From Polynucleobacter sp. (lineage in GTDB: Bacteria > Pseudomonadota > Gammaproteobacteria > Burkholderiales > Burkholderiaceae): a DNA stretch of 64,000 nucleotides. The notes under the pieces were generated by a model that saw nothing but the letters and a program-made list of their open reading frames with translations, was not told where the DNA came from and searched no databases. The stretch lies in contig NZ_JAUXZY010000004.1 in assembly GCF_030693775.1 (NCBI RefSeq), forward strand, positions 868,001 through 932,000, written 5' to 3'. Shown one piece after another: positions 1 through 18,563 of this stretch. Position 1 is the first letter of the stretch, and every line of letters begins with the position of its first letter. Made by a program: the position numbers and the translations under genes.

Positions 1-1
1 G

Positions 2-1033
2 CAATTATTTGTTCAAATAGTTGCATTAGTTTTAACGGAAATCAAAAGACGTTCCGAAGTATATTTTGGCAAAGAATTTGCTGGCGTAGTTTTGGGACGC
101 CCTGTTAATTATATGGGCGCTCAATCGAGTGGCGATAATGAACAAGCCTTAGGAATTATGAGGAAAGCAGCGCAATTAGCTGGCTTTACTGATATTCATT
201 TTGTTATTGAGCCAATGGCGGCATCTTTAGTTATTTCTAGGGCAATGTTCGATTCTAGTGCGCCAGCTGTTGTTATAGATGTCGGCGGTGGTACGACCGA
301 CATAATTTTATTGAATGTCAATTCCGAGGCTGATGAAAAGCTAAATGTATTGAATGCAGTTGGTGAGCGAGTAGGGGGAAATGATTTCGATGAAATTTTA
401 GCTAAAAAGAAGTTTGCCCCTTTTCTTGGCGCAAATTCAGAATCAAGAGATGGCAAAAAGCTTCCTAATCAGCTAATAATGGATGCCCTCAGTACCAGAG
501 ATATTCATAAACAGGCAAATTTTCGAAAACGTGGCATTGAAATTCATGAATATATTAGCCAAGCTGACGAATCATTACCGCTCGAAAGACTTTATCAGCT
601 GTTTCGGATGCAACTTCAGCATCAGATTTTATTAATTTCAGAGGATGCAAAGAAGGCTTTAAGTGATATCGATAACTATGAAGCTCAGTTCCCATTTTTT
701 GATCATCCTTTTAAGGTGGATTTGAGAAAAAATGATTTAGCGGACATTTACGAAAATGAATTAAATATTATTAAGCGTAATGTTTTGAGTGTTTTTAAAG
801 GACATTTAGCGGATGGTCAGGCCTACAGAGTATTTTTGACGGGCGGTATGTCTAGATGTACAACTTTAATTGAATCAATTAAAGAGCTCATTCCAGCTGG
901 CGTCGTCATTAATCGTATTTCAGCTCTGCAAAGTGTTGGCGCTGGTTTGGCTGTCGTCGCAAGGCAATTAGCACTTTCAGACGACGCCTATGCTGAGAAT
1001 TTTTCTGTCAGGGGCATACCTGTAACTAGATAA
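2..1033 (+). CDS. YegD-like Hsp70-family protein, 5' end cut by window
   Basis: The reading frame is open from the first bases, so the gene starts before the window and 343 C-terminal residues are seen; the TTG at 92 is only an internal codon. The text resembles the ATPase fold of DnaK/YegD: a VVLGRPVNY stretch, the phosphate-2 loop VIDVGGGTTDI, a connecting EPMAAS motif, and LTGGMSR as the adenosine loop. The protein ends soon after the nucleotide-binding domain, so there is no DnaK-type substrate-binding domain, as in YegD. It converges on dndE with a 17-nt gap and shares the AT-rich composition of the dnd genes, so it probably belongs to the same island. A chaperone or regulatory ATPase role in phosphorothioate defence is inference. 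Confidence 0.85.
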   Translation, partial: QLFVQIVALVLTEIKRRSEVYFGKEFAGVVLGRPVNYMGAQSSGDNEQALGIMRKAAQLAGFTDIHFVIEPMAASLVISRAMFDSSAPAVVIDVGGGTTDIILLNVNSEADEKLNVLNAVGERVGGNDFDEILAKKKFAPFLGANSESRDGKKLPNQLIMDALSTRDIHKQANFRKRGIEIHEYISQADESLPLERLYQLFRMQLQHQILLISEDAKKALSDIDNYEAQFPFFDHPFKVDLRKNDLADIYENELNIIKRNVLSVFKGHLADGQAYRVFLTGGMSRCTTLIESIKELIPAGVVINRISALQSVGAGLAVVARQLALSDDAYAENFSVRGIPVTR

Positions 1034-1050
1034 TTGGCGGCCTTTAATAG

Positions 1051-1422
1051 TTATTTAATTAAACTTGCCAATAAATTTTCAATTGAATCTGATGACGAGC
1101 CATTTAGATACGAGATACCGCGATGCAGGTGAAGCTTAAAATAATTATTTAGCTCCACCTTTTCTAGGGAAACTCCATTTTTCTTGGCATTTGAAATCAG
1201 CAAGGCCATATAAAGATTTTCAAGTCCTCCAGTAAATGTTCTCCAAGTCATCTCCACCGAACTATCTGCGATGACATTTTCAAAGGGGGGTGGCGTCGTC
1301 TCTCTTAGTGAGAGGCAAAAGGCCCATCTACATAAAACATTCCAGTTTTGTATTCCGGTTCGCCTTTTAAGGGTAATTAATTGAATTTTTGCTTTTTCTG
1401 AGATTCGAACATTTTCAATCAT
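1051..1422 (-). CDS. dndE: DNA sulfur modification protein DndE
   Basis: This 123-aa protein is the last gene of the dndBCDE run. It has the DndE pattern: an N-terminal VRISEKAKIQLITLKRRTG segment, an internal WNVLCRWAFCLSL helix and a helical C-terminus. DndE is a small DNA-binding member of the phosphorothioation complex, reported to bind nicked DNA, and is needed for sulfur insertion into the DNA backbone. The start codon directly abuts the dndD stop codon, so translation is probably coupled. Length matches the family. Assignment rests on sequence pattern plus position; no helicase fusion is present. Confidence 0.88.
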   Translation of the reverse strand: MIENVRISEKAKIQLITLKRRTGIQNWNVLCRWAFCLSLRETTPPPFENVIADSSVEMTWRTFTGGLENLYMALLISNAKKNGVSLEKVELNNYFKLHLHRGISYLNGSSSDSIENLLASLIK

Positions 1423-3390
1423 TTAGGTCCTCGCAGTCTCAAAATATCCTTTGCTGAATACAGAGGATTCAGTAGATTCATCGTAATTAATGGTGTATTC
1501 AAGCGCTATGTGACCTTTGAGTGATTCGTAATGTTCATTTGTAATTTCTTCATCTGTTGAAAAAATCAAAACTTGACTTCCGGCCTTGGGGAAATAGTTT
1601 GAGATCAATTTCTGTCTATGCGGACCGTCTAGTCGACCAAGCGGGGTATCAATAACAGTTGGTAGAGTTTTTCCAGAGGATTTGGCTAATGCCCAAAGTA
1701 TTGCAACAGCCAGAAGTTGTCGCTCCCCAGCTGAGAGAGACTTGGCCGGAACAACCTCTCCGGATGGCTTTACTATTAATAGATTAAAGTCATCTTTATT
1801 AATCTCGAATCTGAGGCCAAACTTGGACTTTCTGTGAAGAAGTTGAAAGCACTTGGATATTTCATCACTTAGCGAAATGAGGTGCTTGGATATAAGTTCA
1901 TCTTTAAATTTAGAAAGCGTATTCTTTGCCTTTTGTGCATGATTAAGTACCCGTTGATTCACAATTTGGCTTGTTTCTAAATCTGCAATTTGGGCTAATT
2001 TATTAGTAATTTCTTTGGTGATGCGCTCCAACTGGGTATTAATAGATCTTATTTCATCAGCTAGAACTTCTGTCTTTAGTTCAAGTTTAGTTTTCTCTTT
2101 CTGCTTTTCGGTAAGATTTTTGACAATATCCGCTACTTTTTCTTCAGACGGAACGGCTTGGAGGCTTTTATTTAAGACATCAATTTCATTCTCAATAACT
2201 TCAAATTCCTTAAGCTTTGATTCAATAGACTTTTTAAGTCCAGAAAGTTCATCTATTGAAGGTAGCTGAGCTTCATCAATATCGGTAGAGAAGCTAGATA
2301 CCTCAGCCAATACTTGTGCAAGTCTTCTATCAAACAGCTGAAATACTGAATCTTTGCTAACTTTATCTAATTCTTTTAATAAAGTTATTTGTTGCTTAAA
2401 TGTTGAGATTTCATCCTCAAAAGCCTTAGCAGATTTTAAGTTATGACCTGAAGCTTTGCTGAGCCCTTGTCGTATTTCAGCAATTTGCTTCGATAAAAGA
2501 AGAAGGGGTGCCATACCTGAGGCGAGCTCTAGAAGCTCATTCGTTAATCTCTTTCTTCTCTCTTTGAGGACTTCAAGGTTTTCTTGTAAGGCATGTCTAT
2601 TTGCCAAAAGATCGGCACCAGAGATTTTCATCTCATCTTCAGTTCTGGCAATCTCAATAGTTAATCTATCTAGTTGATTTGCAATCCCGGCTTTTTCTTG
2701 ACCAATAAGCTCTTTTCTTGAGTTTAATTCCTTAGCAGAAGCTTCCTCTGAGTCTATAGAAATGCTTCCCGATTCCTTGGTAATTTCTAGCGCCTTTCTC
2801 TTTTCAATTTGCGTGAGACTTTTTGCTAGGCTTTCTATGGAATTAATGCCGAGAAGGGAGTAAATACCACTTCTTAATATTGCTGAGGACCTTAGGGGGT
2901 CAGCAAGACCTTCAATCTTTTCGCCATCAAAAAAGAATAGTTCAGAGATTTCTGATGGCATAAACTCTTCAACAAATTCATGCCAGCGCTCGGACGCTGT
3001 TCCATCAAAAATGCCGTCTCTAGTAATCTCGCAAACCTCTTTAATATTAGATGGGCTTGATTCAAACCAATTTCTAGAAACTTCTATTATTTCCTTTTTC
3101 CCATTTTGTTTAGTGGTAAATGTAAGCTTTAAACCAGCGCCATTTTTTGGTGAAACATCGCGGTTGATTAAGCTTTTTAAGTATTCCTCATAAGGACCCT
3201 TTCCTCTTGACGAGGTCTTTGCCGTCTTGCCGTATAAGACAAGCTGTAATGCATCAAGAAAGGTCGTTTTTCCTGAGCCGTTAAATGCCCCAAACAAAAT
3301 AATGGGTTTTTTTGAAGTCGGAGTTAGCTCAACGGTATGCTCACCTTTGTAGATGCCAAAGTTAACTAGAGTTAGCTCATTTAAAATCAC
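1423..3390 (-). CDS. dndD: DNA sulfur modification ATPase DndD (SMC-like)
   Basis: A 655-aa ABC/SMC-type ATPase. Walker A is GAFNGSGKTT at residues 34-43, the middle (about 190-500) is Lys/Glu-rich coiled coil, the ABC signature LSAGER is near 552, and Walker B VIDTPLGRLD is near 577-586. DndD supplies ATPase and DNA-nicking or DNA-opening activity during phosphorothioate insertion. The start overlaps the end of dndC by 4 nt and the stop abuts dndE, so the four genes form one transcription unit. Length is normal for DndD and all ATPase motifs are intact, so the gene looks functional. Confidence 0.93.
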   Translation of the reverse strand: MILNELTLVNFGIYKGEHTVELTPTSKKPIILFGAFNGSGKTTFLDALQLVLYGKTAKTSSRGKGPYEEYLKSLINRDVSPKNGAGLKLTFTTKQNGKKEIIEVSRNWFESSPSNIKEVCEITRDGIFDGTASERWHEFVEEFMPSEISELFFFDGEKIEGLADPLRSSAILRSGIYSLLGINSIESLAKSLTQIEKRKALEITKESGSISIDSEEASAKELNSRKELIGQEKAGIANQLDRLTIEIARTEDEMKISGADLLANRHALQENLEVLKERRKRLTNELLELASGMAPLLLLSKQIAEIRQGLSKASGHNLKSAKAFEDEISTFKQQITLLKELDKVSKDSVFQLFDRRLAQVLAEVSSFSTDIDEAQLPSIDELSGLKKSIESKLKEFEVIENEIDVLNKSLQAVPSEEKVADIVKNLTEKQKEKTKLELKTEVLADEIRSINTQLERITKEITNKLAQIADLETSQIVNQRVLNHAQKAKNTLSKFKDELISKHLISLSDEISKCFQLLHRKSKFGLRFEINKDDFNLLIVKPSGEVVPAKSLSAGERQLLAVAILWALAKSSGKTLPTVIDTPLGRLDGPHRQKLISNYFPKAGSQVLIFSTDEEITNEHYESLKGHIALEYTINYDESTESSVFSKGYFETART

Positions 3391-4979
3391 GCCTTGCTCC
3401 CATCTTCATCAAGGGGAAATAGGTCTGAGACTTCAAATGTAGCCGATGGTTCCATCATATTTCTTACTTGTTCTTCGTCGTCAGTTGTGGTTTGTGATTT
3501 CTTAAGGGCAAATTGATATGCCTCATCCTTATTCTCAAATCCGCCGTTTATAAGTGCTTTTTCCAAGTTTTCATAGATCCCAACTCTTCTAGTGGCTGTG
3601 GAGTAGTTTCTTTCAATATTGAGCAAGTTTCTTACCAGTTGGTAGTGAAGATCGTCTGGTGAATTGTCTTTTGAGGCAAGTTCTCTAAGTAAGGCAATAT
3701 CATTCCTATTGAATAGGGCGCCTTCATCCACGCTCTCAAATGGGTAATCTCTTCCGGTTGCCTCTTTGTAAATTTCCGGAACTCTATCCTCAATTTCATT
3801 CTTATCTTTAACCCATATACGCCTAATTTCTTCTAACTCTTCTTCAGTAATTAGTTGAAATTTTTCAGTTCCTTCGCTACCGCTTGCTCTTACTTGTTCT
3901 TGGGCAATTAAAAGCTCTAGTAATAGTTTTTCACGATAACTTTGGAGGTAGGGGCCGTGCACAAGTTTTTTGCCACCAGTATCCTTGTCATCCATTAGGG
4001 TAAGCCTGCCATCCATCCTTCTAAAGTCGCGCTTATCAAAGTCTGTTATTCCAATATCTAGGAAGTTATCCCGAAAATGAGAAAGAGGGGCCATCCACTT
4101 TTTCTCATCATCATTCTTAATCATCGCTTGCATTGATTTATCTTTGTCAACCAAGGTACAAACAAAGCAGCCAAAACGACTATCACCACAGCTAGGTGTT
4201 GACGTGTCAACTACTAGAGGGCACTCGTTATCTTGAGTTGCCCCGCGGTACATATTTAGAAGCTGGCTATTGTCATAACCCCATGGGTTTTTGTAGGTTA
4301 CCAAGTACTCCCAGACATCATCATTTGACCAGCTAACTATTGGCGGGTAAATCCAGACCCTATCTAGCTTTGGATTTCCATTTCTGCTCAATAAATCACG
4401 AGTAGAGCCTTCGTACCCTTCCATAACCTTTTTTCTTGTCGAGCTCTCGGCCTTACGTGTGCCTAAAACAAGGATGGCTTCACCATTTTTCGCAACTACA
4501 TCAAGAATGAAGCTATTTGAAGGATTAATTTTTAATCTGCTGGTGCACCATCTAAACATGGGCCTGGGGGCCGGATACCCTTTACCAATTAAATTAACCC
4601 AAAATCTATCTTGTAGCTCCGGGGTCAAACGCTTAGGTTCAATTGGCATTCTTTGTTGGATTGCTTCAAGTCTCATCTTCTCAAGAGAAACTTCAACCCA
4701 CATTGCAACGACTGGATTCTCAACTAATGTATCTGTACTGATGACATATATAGGCTTTGAGCGCTGAGACTCTTCAAGCTCTTTAATTGCATACCAAATT
4801 AATTGAAGGCATGCAGTGGAATCCTTGCCGCCGCTATATCCAATTACCCAAGGCAGAGCGTCGCTTAAGTAAAGTCTTTTAATATCGGCTTTAATTGTTT
4901 CTACTTCTGAATCAATCCCATCTGCATCAAACGACGACTTTTGATAGCCATTGACTATATTTATTTTTTTCTCAACCAT
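3387..4979 (-). CDS. dndC: DNA sulfurtransferase DndC (PAPS reductase-like)
   Basis: A 530-aa member of the ATP-pyrophosphatase/PAPS reductase superfamily that activates the DNA backbone and inserts sulfur. The PP-loop SGGKDST is at residues 49-55. RWCTSRLK places Cys145, and a cluster at Cys253, 264, 271 and 274 (C-x10-C-x6-C-x2-C) fits the iron-sulfur site known in DndC. The C-terminal third is charged and helical. It lies 1 nt after dndB and overlaps dndD by 4 nt. No DndA cysteine desulfurase is in the window; in other bacteria a housekeeping IscS can fill that role. Confidence 0.95.
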   Translation of the reverse strand: MVEKKINIVNGYQKSSFDADGIDSEVETIKADIKRLYLSDALPWVIGYSGGKDSTACLQLIWYAIKELEESQRSKPIYVISTDTLVENPVVAMWVEVSLEKMRLEAIQQRMPIEPKRLTPELQDRFWVNLIGKGYPAPRPMFRWCTSRLKINPSNSFILDVVAKNGEAILVLGTRKAESSTRKKVMEGYEGSTRDLLSRNGNPKLDRVWIYPPIVSWSNDDVWEYLVTYKNPWGYDNSQLLNMYRGATQDNECPLVVDTSTPSCGDSRFGCFVCTLVDKDKSMQAMIKNDDEKKWMAPLSHFRDNFLDIGITDFDKRDFRRMDGRLTLMDDKDTGGKKLVHGPYLQSYREKLLLELLIAQEQVRASGSEGTEKFQLITEEELEEIRRIWVKDKNEIEDRVPEIYKEATGRDYPFESVDEGALFNRNDIALLRELASKDNSPDDLHYQLVRNLLNIERNYSTATRRVGIYENLEKALINGGFENKDEAYQFALKKSQTTTDDEEQVRNMMEPSATFEVSDLFPLDEDGSKA

Positions 4980-4980
4980 C

Positions 4981-6072
4981 TTAGCCTCGTTTATATGCTT
5001 CTTCTGTTCGTTTTTCTTCAGGGGATAGTTTTAACCCCAACTTTTGTTTTATTAAATTAGTTGTTAACGTTACGTTATTGTAAGTTTTTGATACTTTTCC
5101 GCCCACAAGTGCTCGACCCTCCCAGACTTTGGCATTGCTACGAGACCAGTCAATATTTTTGAGGGCTGCGAGTTTTTGCTTCCAATCTTTCGGGTGCTCG
5201 CTTAGTAGCTGACTGCCTGCAATCCCGATAGATTGAATTGCTATTCCATGCGAATGGAGGAGCTCTTTACGTATCTCACCTGCGGTAAGCCTGCTTTTTT
5301 GAACCATTTCCCATTCTGGGATGTGCTTTGAAACTTCATCCCAAAATGTGATGCAAAGCTTTGAGGCATTGTTTTCATCAGATAGCTCTTTCGCATCCAA
5401 TAGTGCGTGACAGCCCGTATAGATAGCGCTTAGAGTAAATAACTTTCTAGAGCGCTCGGAAAGTGTACTTCTCTCCATTTCTACTAGCCCCTTAAAGGCA
5501 ATTGACTTTAGGGCAACTAGTTTTGCAATTTTTGACATGTCATTGCGATGATCGTAAAGTAAGCCTAGTGAACGACTAGGCCGTATTGCATGCCTATTTA
5601 AGTCGGCAAACATTTGCTGGCTACGCTCTAACCCTCTGTCAATGAAGAAAACCACGGCGATAGATTCACTCGACAGTGATGAGTCCTCCTTAATCGCCAT
5701 TTCTATGGCGGCTCTTCTATGTTGACCATCGTTGACGATTATTTTTGAATTCATATCTATTCGAAGGAATCCATTTCGCTGGGCTTCGGGGGTATTGTTG
5801 ATGGTTGTGAACTTAACATCCCCATCGATTGAAGCAGTGATTGCTGAAAAAACGTAGTTATCTGGATTGCTTGTTATATACCTGGCAATTTCAGGTACTC
5901 TAGATTTATTAAGAATTCTTTGGGCTCTTAATTCGGGACTAAGCTCCTCTTCGTCAAACTTGAAAATTTTATGAACCAAGCCAAGTGGGCACATTGATAC
6001 AAAATATTCCCTCCCAGCCTGAATTCCACGTATTGCTGGAAAAGTGAAGTGGTGGTCTGTTGTATTTGACAT
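4981..6072 (-). CDS. dndB: DndB, DGQHR-domain protein of the phosphorothioation locus
   Basis: This 363-aa first gene of the operon has the family hallmark DGQHR at residues 115-119, followed by the QxMFADLNRHA-type block (FADLNRHAIRPSRSL) near residue 155. DndB homologues are known as dnd repressors and also modulate modification frequency. The ATG at 6072 is preceded on the transcript by ACAT repeats and no Shine-Dalgarno-like sequence, with only about 20-25 nt between the predicted transcription start and the codon. Two palindromes cover its promoter at 6088-6142, so DndB may bind its own operator; that is inference. Composition is AT-rich compared with the core genome. Confidence 0.95.
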   Translation of the reverse strand: MSNTTDHHFTFPAIRGIQAGREYFVSMCPLGLVHKIFKFDEEELSPELRAQRILNKSRVPEIARYITSNPDNYVFSAITASIDGDVKFTTINNTPEAQRNGFLRIDMNSKIIVNDGQHRRAAIEMAIKEDSSLSSESIAVVFFIDRGLERSQQMFADLNRHAIRPSRSLGLLYDHRNDMSKIAKLVALKSIAFKGLVEMERSTLSERSRKLFTLSAIYTGCHALLDAKELSDENNASKLCITFWDEVSKHIPEWEMVQKSRLTAGEIRKELLHSHGIAIQSIGIAGSQLLSEHPKDWKQKLAALKNIDWSRSNAKVWEGRALVGGKVSKTYNNVTLTTNLIKQKLGLKLSPEEKRTEEAYKRG

Positions 6073-6087
6073 GTATGTATGTATGTT

Positions 6088-6111
6088 TGTTTGTCAAAAT
6101 ATTAACAAACA
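6088..6111. promoter_or_regulatory. Palindromic operator 1 upstream of dndB
   Basis: A 24-bp inverted repeat of form TGTTTGTCAA-N4-TTAACAAACA. It covers the -10 element of the dndB promoter. A second copy follows 31 bp away. Confidence 0.7.
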
Positions 6112-6128
6112 CGTCAATTGTTTGTCAA
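6099..6128 (-). promoter_or_regulatory. Sigma-70-type promoter of dndBCDE
   Basis: Reading the minus strand, -35 TTGACA lies at 6128-6123 and -10 TAATAT at 6104-6099 with an 18-bp spacer. It is the only strong match upstream of dndB, and the start codon (6072) follows the -10 by only 26 nt. Confidence 0.7.
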
Positions 6129-6142
6129 GTATTTAACAAACA
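6119..6142. promoter_or_regulatory. Palindromic operator 2 upstream of dndB
   Basis: The second copy of TGTTTGTCAA-N4-TTAACAAACA, identical to operator 1 in all 20 arm bases and differing only in the central four. It covers the -35 element. The 31-bp centre-to-centre spacing is about three helical turns, which would put both bound dimers on the same face. Confidence 0.7.
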
Positions 6143-6307
6143 CTTTACAGCCCTATGTAACCCAATGATCCAAATAAATTTTTTTGTTTCGTACTAACAG
6201 TGATGGGGATAGGGGGCTTTAAAAAGTCTAAATTACGATAAGAATCTAAGCCAAATAAACCTTTAGCGCCGCTGAAGTTAACTTTCCGTCTTGTCCGCTT
6301 TCAGCCA

Positions 6308-6544
6308 TCAAAGGATCTGAAATGTTTTGTCAATCAGCTGCTTTAGTCTTGGTGTTTCAGCAGCAGATTTGCCTGTAAAGCCAAGGCAATTCTTCCTTAA
6401 TTGTGCTTTTAAAATAGCCTTCGGATCTTGGGACTTGAATTCGAAAAGTTGGCTTTTGCATATTTCGACATAAATTTCATCTGCTGATAGCGGTTTGTTT
6501 GCTGTTTTAAGCACAGTCAAAGCTGCGTCAATAATCGTGGCCAT
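6308..6544 (-). CDS. Stand-alone HARE-HTH (winged-helix) protein
   Basis: A 78-aa protein made almost only of one HARE-HTH domain (the domain shared by HB1, ASXL and restriction endonucleases): an IIDAALTVLKTANKPLSADE opening, the EIYVEICKSQLFEF helix pair, then SQDPKAILKAQLRKN. The family was predicted to read or respond to DNA modification and is often fused to restriction enzymes. Here it is separate, 32 nt downstream of the HNH gene on the same strand, and 235 nt upstream of dndB. It could be a DNA-binding subunit of the nuclease or a regulator of the dnd promoter. Domain identity is fairly clear; function is inferred. Confidence 0.72.
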   Translation of the reverse strand: MATIIDAALTVLKTANKPLSADEIYVEICKSQLFEFKSQDPKAILKAQLRKNCLGFTGKSAAETPRLKQLIDKTFQIL

Positions 6545-6576
6545 CTTTTTTTCCTTAATTTTTGATTATTTAAAGT

Positions 6577-7512
6577 CTACCTAAGCTTACTAAGTCTCCA
6601 TTCTAATGACTCTATCTTTGGTTCGTATGTAGATTCTTTTGGGAGTATTAACGGCAATCCCTCTAGGCTTGTGAAGATCTGTAAATCAGGTATGCGTCGA
6701 TCAATTGACTTGCTCACATGCCATTTTTTATCTGGGCCGGGGCTTATGATGTTTTTATCCATTGCCCAATGCATATTTGGTGTTAAAGCCAGCCCATTTC
6801 TTGGGTCATCATCGCCTGCAACGGAAAAGGGATGGATGTGTGCGGCTTCGACAAGCGCTTCTCCGCTGGGAAGAATAATTCGAGAACCAGTTGCAGCGCA
6901 GCGATAGTCATAAATTTCTATAATTACTTTTCTAAATGCTGGATTTCGAATGAATTCGGATGGGTTGCGTGAAGATTTGGTGGTAGCCCCTTGTCGAATT
7001 GCATTTTCGTATTGGCTAATTCGATTATTTTTTTCTACAATTGAATGCAAATCTTCATCCGTCCTATCAAACCAAAAGTCTGATAATGCCGCTTCTAAAG
7101 CCTTGATGCTTTTTGACTGCTGAATTAGCGCGAAAAGATCATCATTCAAATATGCATATTCAACATTTTCTTTTATGTAATTAAATTCCGATCCACTTTT
7201 CATCGGAATAGTTGTGTCAATTTTTTTTAAATGCCAAAAACTTGGCTCCCCATTATTTAAATTTCCAGATAGGTATACGAATGGGTATTGTGGATTTGGC
7301 TTATCTTTATTTGCTTTTGTGCTAAGAAAGTAAGAAAGATACCTCTCCAGTAGAGTCGGTGCAAAATAAATTTTATTTACCTTTAGTCCGCCTGCATTGG
7401 CAAGGTCAAGCATCGCCAGGAGCATGCAAATTTTATGCGGCGATCGCCTTCCTTCACGTACATGAACCTTGATATCTTTAAATTGCTCTATGTATTTATT
7501 GAGGACAATCAT
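6577..7512 (-). CDS. HNH endonuclease with sulfur-binding-like N-terminal domain
   Basis: A 311-aa protein in two parts. The C-terminal half is an HNH nuclease: Cys205, then AAHIHP with His225/His227, DDPRNGLAL with Asn239, and His248. The N-terminal half (about 5-100) resembles the sulfur-binding domain of phosphorothioate-dependent McrA-type enzymes: a charged loop ending SPHK at 24-27, an LLAMLDL helix, YPF at 76-78 and FWHL at 92-95. I chose ATG 7512 because it overlaps the HIT stop as ATGA; a TTG at 7518 also exists. It is co-directional with HIT and HARE-HTH. Nuclease identity is strong; the sulfur-binding assignment is from pattern only. Confidence 0.82.
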   Translation of the reverse strand: MIVLNKYIEQFKDIKVHVREGRRSPHKICMLLAMLDLANAGGLKVNKIYFAPTLLERYLSYFLSTKANKDKPNPQYPFVYLSGNLNNGEPSFWHLKKIDTTIPMKSGSEFNYIKENVEYAYLNDDLFALIQQSKSIKALEAALSDFWFDRTDEDLHSIVEKNNRISQYENAIRQGATTKSSRNPSEFIRNPAFRKVIIEIYDYRCAATGSRIILPSGEALVEAAHIHPFSVAGDDDPRNGLALTPNMHWAMDKNIISPGPDKKWHVSKSIDRRIPDLQIFTSLEGLPLILPKESTYEPKIESLEWRLSKLR

Positions 7513-7889
7513 TCCCAATACTTTGCCTTACCCGGAATAATCCACCGCACACCACCTTTGGGATCTTCTAAATCTCCCTTGTAACGAGGAATAAGGTGTA
7601 TATGAAGGTGAGGTACGGTTTGTCCTGCTATAGGCCCATCATTAATACCAATGTTGTAGCCGTCGGGCTTAAATTCCTCTTCTAATACTGCTTTGGCTCT
7701 CTCTAAAAGATTAAGCATCGCGCTTTGCTCTTCAGGGGTGATTTCAAACCAAGATCCAATGTGTTGTTTCGGAATGATCAGGGTGTGTCCAGGTGAAACT
7801 GGGTAGCCATCTCGAATCACAAGAGCCAAATCATTGGAGTCAATGATGCGCTCTTGGGGCAGGGTACAAAACGGGCAGGGCTTAGTCAT
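7509..7889 (-). CDS. HIT-family nucleotide hydrolase
   Basis: A 126-aa histidine-triad protein: a CPFC pair at residues 5-8, and the catalytic triad HLHIH at 94-98 with a preceding GIxDGxxAGQTVPH loop. HIT enzymes hydrolyse nucleoside phosphoramidates, adenylylated compounds or dinucleoside polyphosphates. ATG 7889 is preferred over TTG 7892. Its stop codon overlaps the HNH start (ATGA), so the two are translationally coupled. Composition is between that of the dnd genes and the core. HIT-HNH pairs may also occur outside dnd loci, so a dnd-specific role is not assured. Confidence 0.9.
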   Translation of the reverse strand: MTKPCPFCTLPQERIIDSNDLALVIRDGYPVSPGHTLIIPKQHIGSWFEITPEEQSAMLNLLERAKAVLEEEFKPDGYNIGINDGPIAGQTVPHLHIHLIPRYKGDLEDPKGGVRWIIPGKAKYWE

Positions 7890-7921
7890 CAAATAGCTAC
7901 TGAATGGCTGCTTGTCATTTA

Positions 7922-8219: not shown

Positions 8220-8284
8220 GCTAAGGGGAGCTGAAAGCTAAAAAGGGAGCTGCTAGCAGGGGGGGGTAGAACCAAGGGGGAAGT

Positions 8285-8381
8285 GGACGAGCCAAACCCC
8301 CGGCACTGGCAGTACTTGGGTTTGGCTGCTTCGTTCCCGACCTGACCAGGTTGCCAAGCCACCATGCGAGGAGGCCCGTCC
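8285..8381 (-). ncRNA. ffs: Signal recognition particle RNA (4.5S)
   Basis: The minus strand carries the SRP RNA apical signature: CCTGGTCAGGTCGGGAACGA, then AGCAGCC. The ends GGACGGGCC and GGCTCGTCC pair to close a single long hairpin of 97 nt. A -10 TAAAAT lies six nt upstream of the proposed first base (8393-8388). It runs divergently from dnaX, whose start is 32 bp away. A G8 run at 8259-8266 lies downstream. 4.5S RNA joins Ffh in co-translational membrane targeting. Confidence 0.92.
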
Positions 8382-12738: not shown

Positions 12739-14184
12739 TTGAAGATTGTGGTAATAAATTTTAGAAGCATGCGCTTGCCTCTCGCAGGGGTGCTTTTCTG
12801 TTGCGCTGCTATTTCGGTTTCGCATGCGCAGGCACCAGCACTTGCGCGAGAAGCGTCGGTGACCGTTGCCCCCGCAAAAAATATTGCCCCTAGTTCTGCT
12901 GCTAGCCCCAGCATCAATCCCAGCGCCAAAGCAACCGCGCCCACTGAACTCGATTTACGTCAGCTGTGGTCAGAGCTCAAGCTTAATAATCCGCAACTCG
13001 CTGCGCTGCGTGAGTCCTACTTTGCTGCCAAAGCCACCGTCCCGCAAATCGCGGCGCCCGCTAATCCACAAGTGGGATTGGTTTGGTCGGGTATGCCTGC
13101 AAACTCGCCATTTGCCCTAGGCGGAGCCAATCCACCTAATGTCCCCAATTCGCAATACCCCAATGGGGTTAGCAGTAACAACGCCATCTCCTTTTCTCAG
13201 CCATTTCAGTTTCCGGGTAAGAAAAGCCTTGCTGCCGATATTGCCGATACCAATGCAGAAGCCCTCTTGGCCCAAAGCGAATCGACCTACCTGCAATTGG
13301 GGGCGCAATTATCCAGTTTGTATTACAGCGCCTTAGCATCGCAAAAGCAGTTGACGGTGTTACGGGAATCAGTCACCCGGTTGGAGATGATCAAGAACGT
13401 AGCCAAAGCCCGTTACGCCAATAATGCAGCAGCCTATGTGGAGTTTTTAAATGCTCAGGTGGCACAAAGTGCGGCTGAAGCAGATCAGTTTGCGCTTGAT
13501 CGCCAGTTGCAAGTGGCGCTAAGGGGGATCAACGCCTTAATTGGCCGCCATTCGCGTGAGCAATTGCTGCTGCGGGGCGATGCGCGCCTCACCTTGAATA
13601 CCGTACCCAGCTTGCTGGAGCTGGAAGACTATGCGGAAAGCAGCCATCCACTCTTAAAGAGTTCTGCCTTACAACTGGAGGCTGCTAAAAAAGGAGTCAG
13701 CCTAGCCAAGAAAGCTTACTTGCCGGATTTTCAGGTGATTGGATCTTCCTATACTCCGCGTGGCCCGTTTGCTGCGAATAACGGGACTCTGTTTTATCAG
13801 TTCGAGCTGGACATTGTGATTCCACTGTATTTCTTTACCAAAGAAAAGTATGGGGTAGAACAAGCCAGGCGTAATCAAGCCTCGCTCGAAGCCAGCAATA
13901 TTGCTAGTCGCCAACAAGTGGTATTGGCCGTCAATACGGCATACGCCAATTACGAGCAGGCCAGAAATCAGGTGCAGTTTTTACGTGATCGCCAAGTACC
14001 GCAGGCCGATGCAGCGTACAAGGTGGGACTGAACCAATATGCCAATAATGGCCAAGGATTTAATGATGTACTCACAGCGCAAGCGCAATTGCGTTTATTG
14101 GAAATTCAATTGGCGTTAGCGCAAAGCGCGCTACTCCAAAGTCAGGCGACTGTATTGGCAGCCGCCGGTAAAGAACCGTTTTAA
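12739..14184 (+). CDS. TolC/CzcC-type outer-membrane channel of RND efflux
   Basis: A 481-aa outer-membrane factor with signal peptide MRLPLAGVLFCCAAISVSHA if started at ATG 12769; TTG 12739 is the longest start. After an Ala/Pro-rich spacer come two long repeats of helical-barrel segments (LWSELKLNNPQLAALRES, then LKSSALQLEAAKKGVSLAKK). It is first of three genes in the CzcCBA order and would form the exit duct. Starts are ambiguous because neither has a strong ribosome-binding site. Confidence 0.87.
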   Translation: MKIVVINFRSMRLPLAGVLFCCAAISVSHAQAPALAREASVTVAPAKNIAPSSAASPSINPSAKATAPTELDLRQLWSELKLNNPQLAALRESYFAAKATVPQIAAPANPQVGLVWSGMPANSPFALGGANPPNVPNSQYPNGVSSNNAISFSQPFQFPGKKSLAADIADTNAEALLAQSESTYLQLGAQLSSLYYSALASQKQLTVLRESVTRLEMIKNVAKARYANNAAAYVEFLNAQVAQSAAEADQFALDRQLQVALRGINALIGRHSREQLLLRGDARLTLNTVPSLLELEDYAESSHPLLKSSALQLEAAKKGVSLAKKAYLPDFQVIGSSYTPRGPFAANNGTLFYQFELDIVIPLYFFTKEKYGVEQARRNQASLEASNIASRQQVVLAVNTAYANYEQARNQVQFLRDRQVPQADAAYKVGLNQYANNGQGFNDVLTAQAQLRLLEIQLALAQSALLQSQATVLAAAGKEPF

Positions 14185-14193
14185 GGATATCGC

Positions 14194-15453
14194 TTGAAAG
14201 ATCAATTTCGCTCCGGAACAAAAAAGGTGGCAGAGCAGTTAAGCCAGCTCCAGCAGAAGCTCGGTCAGCAGTTTGCGCATCTGCGTGGTAACCTCGCCGA
14301 CCTCTATTGGAATCGCTCACCCGAGCAGCGCCAACGGATTCGCTTAGCTGCGTTTGCCTTTGCGATTTTGTCGCTGGGCATTGTGCTCGGACGGCTGACA
14401 GACATCAATCGCGCAGTGCAAATTGATAAGTCGGACAAGACATTGAAGGTGGAAAAGAGTGGCACCTTAGAGCTCAAGTTGCCCGGCGTTACCCTCAATC
14501 CTGAAATTTATGTTTTTAAAGAAGCAAAAACTACCGAAGTGCCGATTGAAATAAAAGTGCCAGGGCGACTTGCCTTTAATGCGGAAAAATCCAAAGTGAT
14601 ATCCGCGCGGGTAGCAGGACGGGTAGAGCGCATCTTTGCCTTTGATGGCGCCGCTGTTAATCAAGGCTCGCCCATTTTAGAAATGTACAGCCCAGAATTT
14701 AATTCAGCCCAGCAAGAGTACTTGCTGGCGAGTAAAACAGCGAGCATTCTCGGAAAAAATCAGGCCATGGGCGATCTGATGCAGGACGCCAAAATGACCC
14801 AAGATGCAGCGTCCAATCGCCTGCGCAATATCGGCGTATCGGATCAGGAGATCGCGCAGCTCGGCACTAATCAAAAAACGCAGGCGAATTTGCTGATTCG
14901 CTCACCCATTCAGGGGGTTGTGATCAAGCGCAATACCGAACCGGGCGCTTTTGTAAATAGCGGCGATGTGCTTGCTAGTCTGGCTGATCCAAAGGCCTTG
15001 TGGTTTTTGGGCAATGTATTTGAAAAAGACATCCGTCTGTTATCGAGTGGCCAGCAACTCATTCTAAAAACCGAAGCGTATCCCGATCGCGAGTTTATTG
15101 CCCAAACCAATTACGTTGCTCCCAGCGTTGATCCAGAGACGCGGGCATTGCTGATTCGTGCCGACGTCAATAACGACGACGGTTTGCTGCGCCCCGATAT
15201 GTTTATGTCAGCCAAGCTTTTGGTTGGCAAAGGTCTTGCTGTGGTGGTGCCGCAATCGGCGATTGTGCGTATACGTGAGATGCGCTACGCGATTGTGCGG
15301 GTAGCGCCCGATACCTTTCGCCGGCTTCCGGTCAAAGGCTATGACTTAGACGGCAAACGTTTTGCTATTACGGACGGCCTGGGCGCTGGCTTAATGGTGC
15401 TGACGGATGGTGCAGTCTTACTCAACGATCGCTTTGCTAAGTTAGAAGACTAA
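14194..15453 (+). CDS. Periplasmic adaptor (membrane fusion protein), CzcB-like
   Basis: A 419-aa HlyD/CzcB-type adaptor. A membrane anchor lies near residues 50-66 (LAAFAFAILSLGIVLGRL); a barrel-sandwich half motif follows (VAGRVERIFAFDGAAVNQGSP), an alpha-hairpin (about 165-225), then IRSPIQGVVIKRNTEPGAF and a beta-barrel. It starts with TTG nine bases after the channel gene stop. It would link the pump to the outer-membrane channel. The stop codon sits within a 13-nt triple tandem repeat. Confidence 0.88.
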   Translation: MKDQFRSGTKKVAEQLSQLQQKLGQQFAHLRGNLADLYWNRSPEQRQRIRLAAFAFAILSLGIVLGRLTDINRAVQIDKSDKTLKVEKSGTLELKLPGVTLNPEIYVFKEAKTTEVPIEIKVPGRLAFNAEKSKVISARVAGRVERIFAFDGAAVNQGSPILEMYSPEFNSAQQEYLLASKTASILGKNQAMGDLMQDAKMTQDAASNRLRNIGVSDQEIAQLGTNQKTQANLLIRSPIQGVVIKRNTEPGAFVNSGDVLASLADPKALWFLGNVFEKDIRLLSSGQQLILKTEAYPDREFIAQTNYVAPSVDPETRALLIRADVNNDDGLLRPDMFMSAKLLVGKGLAVVVPQSAIVRIREMRYAIVRVAPDTFRRLPVKGYDLDGKRFAITDGLGAGLMVLTDGAVLLNDRFAKLED

Positions 15454-15478
15454 GTTAGAAGACTAGGTTAGAACACTA
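15441..15478 (+). repeat. 13-nt tandem repeat, three copies, between adaptor and pump genes
   Basis: Units of GTTAGAAGACTA plus one base begin at 15441, 15454 and 15467; the third has one change. The first copy encodes the adaptor's last residues and stop, and the remaining copies fill the gap to the pump start at 15480. Confidence 0.85.
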
Positions 15479-15479
15479 A

Positions 15480-18400
15480 ATGAGCCAATTTACTTCCTTC
15501 ATTCGGGGCGTTTTAGAAAAACGCGTCTTGGTGATCGTGGGCTCCATCGTGCTCTTGGGTCTCGGCATGAATAGTCTGAGTAAATTACCCATACAGCCAT
15601 ACCCTGGTGTTGCCCCTTTAACGATTCAAGCCATTTCGCAGTGGCCGGGCAGAAGTACGACTGAGGTCGAGCAGCAAGTCACCATTCCGGTTGAAAATGC
15701 CTTGGCTGGTATTCCGGGGTTGCAGGCCTTTCGCTCAGTCTCGCTCTTTGGCTTATCGGTTGTCACCCTGAAGTTCAATGACACCGCCGATCCGTTTAAA
15801 GCCCGCCAAACCTTCATTGCTAATTTAGCCAACGCCAATTTACCCGCTGGCGTTGTCTCCAGTATTAGTCCAGACTCGGATGCGACTGGAGAGATCATGC
15901 GCTACGAGGTGCACTCCGACTACGCATCTTCGGCTGAACTCAAAACACTGCAAAACTACGAGATCTATAAAGAACTAAAGCAAACCCGTGGCGTTGCGGA
16001 TGTCTCCTCTTTTGGTGGCAAGGTACGCCAATACCAAGTGATTGTGACGCCAGAGAGCCTGCAATCGAAGGGCATTTCCATTGCCCAGTTGATAGCCGCC
16101 ATTACCAGTTCCAATAGCAATATGGGTGGCGGCTTATTGCCCAGTGGCGAGCAGCAGTTTGTGGTGCGTGGTGTGGGCTTGCTGAAGAACATCGACGACA
16201 TTAAGCAAGTTGTCATCACCACCAACAATGGCGTTCCAGTTCGGGTAGGTGATGTGGCCACAGTTCAAATTGGTAATGCGCCGCGCCTAGGTTTATTTCA
16301 GTTCAATGAGAACCCAGATTCCGTCGAAGGCATCATTTATTTGCGCCGCGGCGAAAACGCCACCGAAGTATTAGCGCGAGTACGTGAGACCGTTAATAAC
16401 ATTAATAAGCAAATTCTGCCGCCCGGCATTGAAGTGCGGCCTTTTTATGATCGCCAGGTATTGCTCGACATTACCGTCGGCACGGTGAAACACACCTTGT
16501 TTTTTGGTATCACCTTAGTTCTTGCCATTCTCTATATCTTTTTGGGAAATCTGCGCGCCGCTGCGGTGGTGGCTGCGGTGATTCCATTGGCACTGTGCGT
16601 GGCCTTTATTCAGATGCACATTTGGAGCGTACCTGCCAATCTCATCTCCTTGGGGGCCATCGACTTTGGTGTGATTGTGGATGCTGCCGTCATTTTGACG
16701 GAGAATGTGATGCGGCATTTGGAGAAGGGCGGTAAGCGCTTAAACCAAAGCATCATCCTGGCAACGAGTGAAGTGCAGCGGGCAATGATCTATTCGACGG
16801 GCATCATTATTGTGGCCTACTCGCCGCTGTTCTTTATGGGCGGAGTCGAGGGCATCATCTTCAAGCCCATGGCCTTTACGATGGGCTTTGCCTTAATTGC
16901 TGCGGTGATTTTGAGCCTGACCTTTTTGCCGGCCATGATCTCCTTGATATTTGGCGAGACCATGGGGCACAAGCCACCGAGTTTTATCACTCGTTTGATT
17001 GAGGGCTATAAGCCTTTGCTCCGCCGCTGGATGGATCGCCCCAGAACGATTGTGGCAGTCGCGGTCTTTATTCTCGGACTCACGCTGCTCAGCGTAACCC
17101 GTTTAGGCACCGCTTTTTTACCCACCCTTGAAGAAAATAACATTTGGTTACGGGTCACGCTCCCCAACACGGTTGACCTCGACTACTCGATTAAGGTCGC
17201 CAACCAATTGCGCGAGAACTTCATTAAACAGCCTGAAATCGAAAAGGTCGCGGTACAAATTGGTCGACCCGATGACGGCACCGACTCTACTGGGGTATTT
17301 AATATCGAGTTTGGTCTTTATCTCAAATCACCCGATAAGCTCCCAAAGGGAAGCAGTAAGAAACAATTGATTCAGAAGCTGGAAGGCGTTCTAAATCAAA
17401 TCCCGGGTGCCAATTACAGTTTTTCACAATACATTCAGGACAACGTCAATGAGGCGCTCTCCGGTGTGAAGGGCGAGAATTCGGTCAAAATCTACGGCGC
17501 CGATTTAGAAGTGCTCGATGCTAAAGCCAAAGAAGTACTGGAGCAGATTAAACACGTCCGCGGCGTAGCCGACGAAGGCATTCTTAAGGAATTAGGCCAG
17601 CCCACACTGAACATTCAGATTGATCGTGAGCGAGCAGCGCGGTATGGCATTAATGTCAGCGATATTCAGACGGTGGTTGCGAACGCCATTGGCGGCGCTG
17701 CAATCACGAACTTATTGGAAGACGAAAAGACCTTTGGTATTGCCGTACGCCTCAGTGAAGCGAGTCGCAATGATGTATCCGACATATCGCAACTATTGGT
17801 TGATGCCCCTGGCGGAAAAAGAATACCCCTTTCGATGGTGGCCAAAATTGAACTCAGTGATGGGCCTTTCTTTATCTACCGCGAAGCCGGTAAGCGCTAC
17901 ATTGCGATTAAATTCAGTGTGCGCGGACGCGACTTGGGTAGTGCAGTTGAGGATGCTCAATTCTTAGTTGAACAAAATGTCGTATTGCCAGCAAATTACT
18001 CGATCAGCTGGGATGGCCAATTTAATCAAATGAAACAGGCGCAGAGTAAGCTGATGGTGATCGTGCCCTTAGCATTGCTTGGGATCTTCCTACTACTCGT
18101 GAGTGCCTTTGGTAATTTCCGGGATGCGGTGATTGTCATGATCAACGTACCCTTTGCTGCGATAGGCGGGGTAATCGCACTGCACTTGGCGGGCGAGACC
18201 CTCAGCATTTCTGCATTCTTTGGCTTTTTATCGCTCTTTGGTATTGCTATTCAGGACGGGGTGATCCTCATCTCCTTTATCAATAAAACCGTAGCCAATG
18301 AACATGGCGCCATGAAGGATTCGATGGTGGAGGGCGCCGCTTTGCGTGTCAGACCCGTATTGATGACTGCCATGCTCTCGGGCTTTGGATTGCTGCCCGC

Positions 18401-18563
18401 CGCGCTCTCGACCTCCATTGGCTCCGAGGCGCAGCGCCCCTTGGCCCTCGTGATTGTGGGCGGCATGGTAACCACCACCATTCTGACCCTACTGGTGCTA
18501 CCGGTCATTTACGGCTGGTTCCGTTGCCGGAGTCTGCCAGCCCCCGTCAAAGTCTCGGTATGA
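15480..18563 (+). CDS. Heavy-metal efflux RND transporter, CzcA-like
   Basis: A 1027-aa inner-membrane proton-driven pump with the twelve-helix RND plan and two large periplasmic loops. The fourth helix carries Asp395, Asp401 and Glu408 (DFGVIVDAAVILTEN); their spacing of 6 and 7 matches the catalytic D/D/E of CzcA and marks the divalent heavy-metal branch. The second half has the matching FFGFLSLFGIAIQDGVILI helix. Together with the two upstream genes it forms a CzcCBA-type system that would export Zn, Co or Cd. The metal is inferred from the family, and no metal-sensor gene is nearby. Confidence 0.93.
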   Translation: MSQFTSFIRGVLEKRVLVIVGSIVLLGLGMNSLSKLPIQPYPGVAPLTIQAISQWPGRSTTEVEQQVTIPVENALAGIPGLQAFRSVSLFGLSVVTLKFNDTADPFKARQTFIANLANANLPAGVVSSISPDSDATGEIMRYEVHSDYASSAELKTLQNYEIYKELKQTRGVADVSSFGGKVRQYQVIVTPESLQSKGISIAQLIAAITSSNSNMGGGLLPSGEQQFVVRGVGLLKNIDDIKQVVITTNNGVPVRVGDVATVQIGNAPRLGLFQFNENPDSVEGIIYLRRGENATEVLARVRETVNNINKQILPPGIEVRPFYDRQVLLDITVGTVKHTLFFGITLVLAILYIFLGNLRAAAVVAAVIPLALCVAFIQMHIWSVPANLISLGAIDFGVIVDAAVILTENVMRHLEKGGKRLNQSIILATSEVQRAMIYSTGIIIVAYSPLFFMGGVEGIIFKPMAFTMGFALIAAVILSLTFLPAMISLIFGETMGHKPPSFITRLIEGYKPLLRRWMDRPRTIVAVAVFILGLTLLSVTRLGTAFLPTLEENNIWLRVTLPNTVDLDYSIKVANQLRENFIKQPEIEKVAVQIGRPDDGTDSTGVFNIEFGLYLKSPDKLPKGSSKKQLIQKLEGVLNQIPGANYSFSQYIQDNVNEALSGVKGENSVKIYGADLEVLDAKAKEVLEQIKHVRGVADEGILKELGQPTLNIQIDRERAARYGINVSDIQTVVANAIGGAAITNLLEDEKTFGIAVRLSEASRNDVSDISQLLVDAPGGKRIPLSMVAKIELSDGPFFIYREAGKRYIAIKFSVRGRDLGSAVEDAQFLVEQNVVLPANYSISWDGQFNQMKQAQSKLMVIVPLALLGIFLLLVSAFGNFRDAVIVMINVPFAAIGGVIALHLAGETLSISAFFGFLSLFGIAIQDGVILISFINKTVANEHGAMKDSMVEGAALRVRPVLMTAMLSGFGLLPAALSTSIGSEAQRPLALVIVGGMVTTTILTLLVLPVIYGWFRCRSLPAPVKVSV

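What the first reader, a model, noticed from the sequence alone, without database searches (positions are those of the whole stretch)
1..7889. A PT modification locus joined to HARE-HTH, HNH and HIT genes instead of DndFGH
dndBCDE is complete and intact (seen). The neighbours are an HNH nuclease with a sulfur-binding-like N-terminus, a HARE-HTH protein, a HIT hydrolase and a YegD-like Hsp70, all AT-rich and packed. Known dnd systems pair modification with DndFGH, or with SspE in the Ssp type. This set could be an alternative restriction arm in which PT marks are read by a single HNH enzyme helped by a HARE-HTH subunit. The absence of dndFGH is certain only inside the window.
Basis: partly seen in the sequence, partly recalled or inferred. 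Interest (0 to 1): 0.85.

Follow-up and report, generated by a model that had tools for sequence, protein, structure and literature searches.

The report
DNA-sulfur defence island with swappable nuclease
A bacterial chromosome carries a gene set predicted to tag its own DNA with sulfur and to block untagged DNA, and beside it sits a separate gene pair whose nuclease would likely cut sulfur-tagged foreign DNA; related bacteria carry different nucleases joined to the same partner gene at the same point, so the pair looks like an exchangeable defence part.

Summary
In detail: intact dndBCDE and, upstream on the same strand, HIT, an HNH nuclease with a sulfur-binding domain (SBD) and a 78-aa HARE-HTH. 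Just left of the window, convergent with dndBCDE, lies a PbeABCD-like arm (PbeA and PbeC clear; PbeB and PbeD by size, order or weak match), followed by the Hsp70. So the missing DndFGH has a known substitute that is not HNH+HARE.

The HNH is an SBD-HNH: its best fold match is an SBD solved on phosphorothioate (PT) DNA; pocket and catalytic residues are kept. Its subfamily does not track dnd: no dnd gene in the DNA held around 46 related loci. Its recurrent partner is HIT: directly upstream in 23 of 42 full-length cases. In 9 of 9 genus-mates with a close HIT orthologue, HIT is followed by an HNH nuclease of another architecture. In the closest relative, at the same site, DNA identity collapses exactly at HIT's stop codon. 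HNH-HIT fusions are abundant.

Most likely: a Dnd-Pbe system plus an independent, exchangeable HIT-HNH type IV cassette. An intact PT writer beside an intact PT-reading nuclease is the paradox worth testing.

The parts
7509..7889 (-). HIT hydrolase gene (126 aa from ATG; a TTG start at 7892 is possible); its TGA overlaps the HNH start as ATGA
   Evidence: PF01230 94 bits; HLHIH motif; nearer to Fhit and Ap4A phosphorylase chains (about 59 bits) than to HINT1 (about 40)
6577..7512 (-). SBD-HNH nuclease, 311 aa: sulfur-binding domain (residues about 5-163), HNH_2 (207-258)
   Evidence: pocket residues H26 K27 Y76 P77 by alignment to ScoMcrA H116 R117 Y164 P165; H225 N239 H248 invariant in 26 homologues
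6308..6544 (-). stand-alone HARE-HTH protein, 78 aa
   Evidence: PF05066; 29 relatives, 22 of them exactly 78 aa; dnd-associated in the order
6099..6128 (-). promoter-like site upstream of dndB (TTGACA, 18 nt, TAATAT)
   Evidence: consensus scan only
4981..6072 (-). dndB
   Evidence: TIGR03233 535 bits; DGQHR at 115
3387..4979 (-). dndC, sulfurtransferase; SGGKDS loop and cysteines 253, 264, 271, 274 present
   Evidence: TIGR03183 650 bits
1423..3390 (-). dndD, ABC ATPase; no CxC motif
   Evidence: TIGR03185 544 bits. PADLOC's best model is one named PbeC (617 bits) ahead of DndD (589)
1051..1422 (-). dndE
   Evidence: TIGR03184 118 bits, PF08870 126 bits
1..1033 (+). 3' part of a YegD-like Hsp70 gene (569 aa from ATG at contig C1:867324), last gene of the Pbe-like run, which lies left of the window on the same strand: PbeA C1:862582-864627, 53-aa ORF in the PbeB place 864630-864791, PbeC 864792-866816, dnd_assoc_4 (PbeD-like) 866813-867304
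8283..8380 (-). small SRP RNA gene between HIT and dnaX; conserved right border of the island
   Evidence: RF00169 68 bits; 99% identical over 224 nt to G010

Best explanation
This is a defence island of two separable units: a dndBCDE-pbeABCD-like set, predicted to mark the cell's own DNA with phosphorothioate and to block DNA that lacks the mark, and an overlapping HIT-HNH gene pair whose sulfur-binding nuclease would cut foreign DNA that carries phosphorothioate, likely in sequence contexts that the resident Dnd does not use. Shown by sequence: full-length dndBCDE and iscS, a PbeABCD-like run, an SBD-HNH with pocket and catalytic residues kept, the HIT/HNH overlap, and different HNH genes behind orthologous HIT genes. 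Inferred: PT is made; Pbe acts on unmarked DNA (as reported for archaeal DndCDEA-PbeABCD); the HNH is PT-dependent; the host is spared by a difference in sequence context or by tight expression; HIT serves the nuclease by acting on cut DNA ends or on nucleotides (for instance stripping AMP left by ligase, so that cuts stay open); HARE-HTH belongs to the dnd side and tunes expression or reads modified DNA. Together the two units would cover opposite invaders: unmarked DNA and wrongly marked DNA.
For: Pbe arm: PADLOC PbeA 562 bits, PbeC 387 bits with CxC at 327, dnd_assoc_4 55 bits, a 53-aa ORF in the PbeB place, published order A-B-C-D (PMC6459918 passages; PMC10853773 section 16). TIGR03238 and TIGR03236 not found in the genome. 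SBD: PDB 8h0l E 4e-19, TM 0.80; SprMcrA and ScoMcrA SBDs next. HNH independent of dnd: no dnd hit at 46 loci. HIT-HNH bond: 23 of 42 full-length SBD-HNH genes; 9 of 9 genus HIT orthologues; 10 of 30 HIT loci in the order, own included; 4 fused proteins in the genus (Pfam run on two); 120 of 120 listed hits of 5155 carry both domains. Exchange: same host flanks in G010, identity 87% up to window base 7509, the last base of the HIT stop, then 16-36% per 50 nt. Writer-reader conflict: dnd plus ScoMcrA in one host is lethal (PMC3009677 abstract).
Against: PT dependence is not measured, and nothing shows how the host escapes its own nuclease. The HNH scores 84.6 bits against the 180 cut-off of the PT-DNA_restrict model. 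20 of 30 HIT loci in the order have no HNH downstream, and 19 of 42 SBD-HNH genes have no HIT directly upstream, so neither is obligate. HNH, HARE and dndB run in one direction and could be one operon. PbeB and PbeD assignments are weak (no family match; 55 bits against a 74 cut-off). PMC10853773 counts 698 taxa with a wHTH-SAD-HNH protein in Dnd loci, so SBD-type readers may cooperate with Dnd.
Confidence: 0.55

Rival explanations
1. One reading: the HNH, helped by HARE-HTH, is the restriction arm of Dnd; its SBD reads self PT and spares marked DNA while unmarked DNA is cut, in outcome like DndI.
For: Same strand and close spacing upstream of dndB; SBD present; HARE family dnd-associated; Chlorohelix plasmid has an SBD-HNH abutting an intact dndB-dndE-dndD-dndC-dndB run with a truncated PbeC; PMC10853773 proposes such readers as restriction components (passages).
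Against: A Pbe-like arm is already present. No dnd gene at 46 loci of this HNH subfamily; none of 18 other dndC loci has a full-length SBD-HNH. Characterised SBD-HNH enzymes cut PT DNA rather than spare it (PMC7461809 passages).
Confidence: 0.15
2. Self-directed version: the HNH is activated by host PT during infection, as SspE is licensed by PT, with HIT, HARE-HTH or tight expression as the brake; the pair is a suicide or last-line effector of the island.
For: Intact writer and intact reader side by side; SspE needs PT for its activity (PMC11662687 passage); suicide action is proposed for Dnd-linked nucleases (PMC10853773).
Against: HIT-HNH pairs stand without dnd in the 23 loci counted, so a PT writer is not part of the module; no DUF262 domain.
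Confidence: 0.13
3. The HNH is a recent arrival that is weak, silent or mismatched, and coexistence is a passing state; the usual outcome is loss of the writer or of the reader.
For: Where distant SBD-HNH adjoin dnd, the writer is often broken: two Picosynechococcus plasmids (related copies) keep dndC only from about residue 190, and G263 keeps about 50 residues of dndC next to the nuclease; Chlorohelix keeps dndBCDE but has Y in place of H26. Bsp48385I, which sits with dnd, has low, PT-independent activity (PMC7461809 passage).
Against: Here the HNH residues and P77 are invariant in 26 homologues, K27 too, H26 in nearly all; relatives at 66-95% identity exist in quantity. Only three independent comparison loci.
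Confidence: 0.17

Closest known systems
DndCDEA-PbeABCD (PMC6459918), which PMC10853773 describes as a DndD-DndE system beside a CxC ATPase-DndE system
   Same: dnd modification genes next to PbeA (SF2 helicase), a small ORF, CxC-type PbeC and a small dnd-associated protein in A-B-C-D order
   Different: dndB present, dndA replaced by a distant iscS, an Hsp70 gene attached, and HIT-HNH-HARE on the other side
SBD-HNH PT-dependent endonucleases (EcoWI, SprMcrA; PMC7461809) and ScoMcrA (PMC6224610, PMC3009677)
   Same: N-terminal sulfur-binding domain and C-terminal HNH, with pocket and catalytic residues kept
   Different: sits beside an intact PT writer and is joined to a HIT gene; below the NF045808 cut-off; cutting not tested
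IscS-DndBCDE-DndI and SspABCD-SspE (PMC11662687 passages)
   Same: a single HNH-bearing protein beside PT modification genes
   Different: those carry DUF262 and DUF1524; here only HNH_2 matched in Pfam
HARE-HTH plus REase proteins in Dnd loci (PMC10853773)
   Same: the HARE-HTH resembles that of a HARE-Mrr protein beside dndE in L103 (36% identity)
   Different: here HARE-HTH stands alone, 78 aa, with no nuclease domain
Thoeris type II with ThsC, a HIT protein (PMC8565338 passage)
   Same: a HIT hydrolase as accessory of a defence system; the window HIT matches the ThsC model at 44 bits
   Different: partner here is an HNH endonuclease; no Thoeris protein among those scanned
HNH-HIT fusion proteins (annotated in databases as HIT domain-containing protein or Ap4A hydrolase/5-methylcytosine-specific restriction endonuclease)
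   Same: HNH and HIT together
   Different: one polypeptide with another N-terminal domain, next to an SLFN-type helicase in L173

Membership tests
Dnd-PbeABCD system | PT modification genes dndC, dndD, dndE intact | tested here: met
   full-length matches over curated cut-offs; motifs
Dnd-PbeABCD system | cysteine desulfurase available | tested here: met
   IscS 736 bits over cut-off at C1:635473-636672; no dndA in the locus was noted
Dnd-PbeABCD system | PbeA (SF2 helicase with HKD-type domain) | tested here: met
   PADLOC PbeA 562 bits over 8-674; dnd_restrict_1 361 bits, below its 600 cut-off; HxK and GSxN motifs
Dnd-PbeABCD system | PbeC, ABC ATPase with CxC hook | tested here: met
   PADLOC PbeC 387 bits; CIC at 327
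Dnd-PbeABCD system | PbeB small protein between PbeA and PbeC | tested here: inconclusive
   53-aa ORF in the right place, no family match
Dnd-PbeABCD system | PbeD, DndE-type partner of PbeC | tested here: inconclusive
   dnd_assoc_4 55 bits against cut-off 74; same neighbour order on a Rhizobium plasmid
Dnd-PbeABCD system | exclusion of DNA that lacks PT | not testable with these tools
   needs PT measurement and infection assays
SBD-HNH modification-dependent endonuclease | sulfur-binding domain fold | tested here: met
   8h0l E 4e-19; TM 0.80 by target length
SBD-HNH modification-dependent endonuclease | sulfur pocket residues | tested here: met
   H26 K27 Y76 P77 by alignment; Y76 varies among homologues (Y, F or H seen)
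SBD-HNH modification-dependent endonuclease | HNH catalytic residues | tested here: met
   H225 N239 H248 invariant in 26 rows
SBD-HNH modification-dependent endonuclease | PT-dependent cutting | not testable with these tools
   no assay
NF045808 PT-DNA_restrict (narrow NCBI model of type exception) | curated cut-off of 180 bits | tested here: not met
   84.6 bits over 10-310; so not filed under this model, only under the wider architecture
DndFGH restriction arm | dnd-associated families TIGR03238 and TIGR03236 in the genome | tested here: not met
   no match in own genome; positive in G415 (both) and G144 (TIGR03238 only); assembly 94.5% complete
DndI / SspE | DUF262 plus DUF1524 domains | tested here: not met
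   only HNH_2 matched in Pfam

The most novel reading that the evidence does not exclude
HIT-HNH is an undescribed two-component restriction module: a Fhit-like HIT hydrolase is the fixed subunit, and HNH nucleases with different reading domains are swapped in at its stop codon or fused to it. HIT acts on the cut DNA ends or on the nucleotides released (stripping ligase AMP, or sulfur from thio-nucleotides in the PT-reading versions). Here the module pairs a PT reader with a resident PT writer, so that one island reads three states of DNA: unmarked, self-marked and foreign-marked.
Probability: 0.35. Interest if true: 0.75.

Novelty: new variant of a known kind. Interest (0 to 1): 0.52.

Why it matters
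A PT-cutting nuclease and a PT writer are expected to exclude each other; co-expression of one such pair kills the cell (PMC3009677 abstract). An island with both intact makes it directly testable how a cell lives with writer and reader. The HIT-HNH bond, seen as neighbours, overlaps and fusions across several HNH types, gives HIT hydrolases a testable role in modification-dependent restriction, and the exact swap point behind HIT shows how specificity is exchanged in a defence island.

Tried and rejected
HNH+HARE as the missing restriction arm: not chosen, because a PbeABCD-like arm is present and this HNH does not track dnd. HARE as a broken piece of a HARE-Mrr protein: unlikely, since 22 of 29 relatives are exactly 78 aa (that search admits only proteins of 0.55-1.75 times the length, so larger forms were hidden). 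HIT as a PT-specific desulfurase on the HINT1 model (dGMPS to dGMP and H2S; PMC8775712 passages): kept only in the novel case, because HIT also adjoins HNH proteins without a detected SBD and resembles Fhit-type chains more than HINT1. That Fhit- or aprataxin-type HIT proteins act on sulfated or adenylated substrates is recalled, not looked up. HNH or HARE in viral contigs: none found. HARE profile against solved structures: none. Hsp70 as a recurrent Pbe gene: not seen in 9 other genomes searched, nor in the one plasmid region read. One HNH and one HARE relative share a longest-contig length of 1448; this may be chance and was not counted. Co-occurrence of SBD-HNH and dndC in the order is too sparse to test: 9 of 399 genomes have a match spanning the whole NF045808 model, 1 of these 9 (own) has dndC over cut-off.

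Print: no paper describing a HIT-HNH module was found in the searches (listings; passages of PMC7641849, PMC8565338 and PMC13092281 read). Searches for the Hga SBD paper found nothing. Subscription papers and supplements were not searched. Papers seen: PMC10853773 abstract, passages, sections 16 and 24 in full; PMC3009677 abstract and outline; PMC6459918, PMC7461809, PMC11662687, PMC6224610, PMC8775712, PMC7641849, PMC8565338, PMC13092281 passages only.
Full report
What is there. The window is bases 868001-932000 of contig C1 of a 1.94-Mb genome, 94.5% complete, in 5 contigs. A genus-mate in the search set (G031, locus L169) encodes a protein 100% identical to one named from Polynucleobacter sp. 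MG-Unter2-18, so the genus is probably Polynucleobacter (inference). The minus strand carries HIT, HNH, HARE-HTH, dndB, dndC, dndD, dndE in that order; the plus strand brings in the end of a YegD-like Hsp70. dndBCDE match their models over nearly full length and above cut-offs. Gene GC is 0.37-0.46 against 0.54 for dnaX.

What lies beyond the left edge. The 20 kb to the left hold, on the plus strand and leading into the Hsp70: PbeA (681 aa; PADLOC PbeA 562 bits; dnd_restrict_1 361 bits, below its 600 cut-off), a 53-aa ORF without family match, PbeC (674 aa; 387 bits; CxC at 327) and a 163-aa protein matching dnd_assoc_4 at 55 bits, below its 74 cut-off. This is the published order pbeABCD (PMC6459918 passages; PMC10853773 section 16). 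A Rhizobium plasmid has PbeC, dnd_assoc_4 and a PbeA-like helicase in one run beside Ssp-like genes, which supports calling the 163-aa protein PbeD-like. TIGR03238 and TIGR03236 have no match in the genome; as controls, TIGR03238 matches in 2 of 13 genomes (G415, G144) and TIGR03236 in 1 of 3 (G415, not G144). IscS is present. The missing DndFGH is thus not a gap left for HNH to fill; a known alternative arm is there.

The HNH. Residues 5-163 match the SBD of Hga (PDB 8h0l) at E 4e-19. The AlphaFold2 model (mean pLDDT 71.5; residues 177-233 below 50) matches 8h0l with TM 0.80 by target length, then SprMcrA and ScoMcrA SBDs. H26, K27, Y76 and P77 stand where ScoMcrA has H116, R117, Y164 and P165 (PMC6224610 passages). 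In 26 homologues K27, P77, H225, N239 and H248 are invariant and H26 nearly so; Y76 varies. The match to NCBI's PT-DNA_restrict spans 10-310 but scores 84.6 bits against a cut-off of 180.

HNH does not track dnd. At 46 related loci from species genomes (22 with the full 10 kb on both sides, the rest on shorter contigs; the own genome is left out of that collection) tblastn found no DndB-E, PbeA, PbeC, HARE or Hsp70. Of 18 other dndC loci of the order (up to 20 kb each; 6 of 18 also with DndB) none has a full-length SBD-HNH; two have a 179-aa ORF with SBD similarity, one has HIT directly after dndE, one a HARE-Mrr protein beside dndE, none the Hsp70. More distant SBD-HNH proteins adjoin dnd genes in 3 of 7 plasmid regions read, out of 96 records matched. 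On the two Picosynechococcus plasmids dndC is found only from about residue 190 on; on the Chlorohelix plasmid dndBCDE is whole, PbeC is a 55-residue match, and Y stands for H26; in G263 the nuclease follows about 50 residues of dndC. PMC7461809 puts under 3.6% of such enzymes near dnd (passage); PMC10853773 counts 698 taxa with a wHTH-SAD-HNH protein in Dnd loci (passage). Coexistence is therefore in print; an intact writer beside an intact reader is the part worth attention.

HNH does track HIT. 23 of 42 full-length SBD-HNH genes have HIT directly upstream on the same strand (4 of 46 were partial and dropped; in three of the 23 the HIT match is partial or split). The other 19 do not; in 4 of them a NOV_C-type and in 3 an SLFN-helicase-type gene stands there (Pfam run on one of each). 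Of 121 genomes of the genus, 10 hold a full-length HIT match at 70% identity or more, own included; an eleventh has a piece cut by a contig end. In the 9 relatives the next gene is an HNH nuclease, over a Pfam HNH cut-off in 9 of 9: five of 343-364 aa without detected SBD, four of 471-480 aa whose N-terminus resembles the SBD (profile comparison; NCBI model run on two of the four). In the order, of the 30 HIT loci returned, 10 (own included) are followed by an overlapping HNH and 20 are not (home-made profiles); in one of the 20, G473, an HNH match lies just upstream. Four genus-mates' loci carry wHTH-HNH-HIT in one polypeptide (wHTH judged by eye; HNH and HIT confirmed by Pfam on two). A search with one of them gave 5155 proteins, and all 120 listed carry both HIT and HNH domains. 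Of six plasmid HIT regions read, out of 125 records, three have an annotated HNH next to HIT.

The swap. In G010, between the same host genes (dnaX, ybaB, recR on one side, rhodanese and LysR on the other), HIT is 91% identical but is followed by another HNH and an SLFN-type helicase. DNA identity is 87% over 710 nt ending at window base 7509, the last base of HIT, then 16-36% per 50-nt window. In the alignment of ten genomes identity to the window falls at the same point in all nine comparisons, and eight of ten share the ATGA overlap. HNH genes differ behind a kept HIT; exchange is the simplest reading.

HARE-HTH. A conserved protein, 78 aa in 22 of 29 relatives. Its profile finds 3 of 399 order genomes, all among the 19 with dndC over cut-off; leaving out the own genome, two of two by chance is about 0.002 (18/398 x 17/397). 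In the other two it lies in an open frame of about 280 aa (HARE-Mrr in G441, beside dndE; in G415 about 40 kb from dndC on the same contig). It goes with dnd rather than with HNH, as PMC10853773 reports for HARE-REase proteins.

How it most likely works. Shown: gene content, kept motifs, different HNH genes behind HIT, absence of the tested DndFGH families. Inferred: dndBCDE with IscS mark host DNA with PT; the Pbe arm stops unmarked DNA; the HNH cuts foreign PT DNA in other contexts; HIT helps the HNH by acting on ends or nucleotides. The lethality of dnd with ScoMcrA (PMC3009677 abstract) means that a context difference or expression control must protect the host; no call shows which. I give 0.55 to the whole reading; the anatomy is firmer than the mechanism.

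Limits. No PT measurement and no enzyme assay. Metagenome contigs with the closest HNH relatives could not be fetched. HNH assignment used home-made profiles. Counts depend on the genomes sampled and on contig ends.

Noticed in passing
window 1-1033 and contig C1:867324-868000: A 569-aa YegD-like Hsp70 follows the PbeD-like gene in the Pbe run; no such neighbour was seen elsewhere. It may be a fifth, accessory gene of this Pbe arm.
   Followed up: partly
L106:7683-13016: dndBCDE with HIT directly after dndE and an IS21 transposase next to it; no HNH found in the locus.
   Followed up: partly
L111:10722-11258 and L112:8467-9003: 179-aa ORF with similarity to the SBD part of the window HNH (residues 1-62), divergent from a short dndC-like gene: possibly a stand-alone PT reader.
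   Followed up: no
L168:12001-22903: Rhizobium indigoferae plasmid: PbeC, dnd_assoc_4 and a PbeA-like helicase beside genes annotated like an Ssp set (cysteine desulfurase, DUF4007, ATP-binding, PAPS reductase family): a Pbe arm next to another PT writer.
   Followed up: partly
L018:7599-10936, L173:978-3853, L120:9583-12891: SLFN-type helicase genes sit with HIT, HNH or HNH-HIT fusion genes, suggesting a larger module in some genomes.
   Followed up: partly
L161:8001-14608, L165:8001-14305: Picosynechococcus plasmids with an SBD-HNH near a dndC that lacks its N-terminal part: possible trace of writer-reader conflict.
   Followed up: partly
window 8283-8380: Small SRP RNA gene between the island and dnaX; the dnaX side is the conserved border of a site that holds different defence genes in relatives (L120, L122, L123).
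   Followed up: partly
window 12739-18563: Genes that look like an outer membrane factor, a membrane fusion protein and an RND transporter (by reading the translations; not scanned).
   Followed up: no
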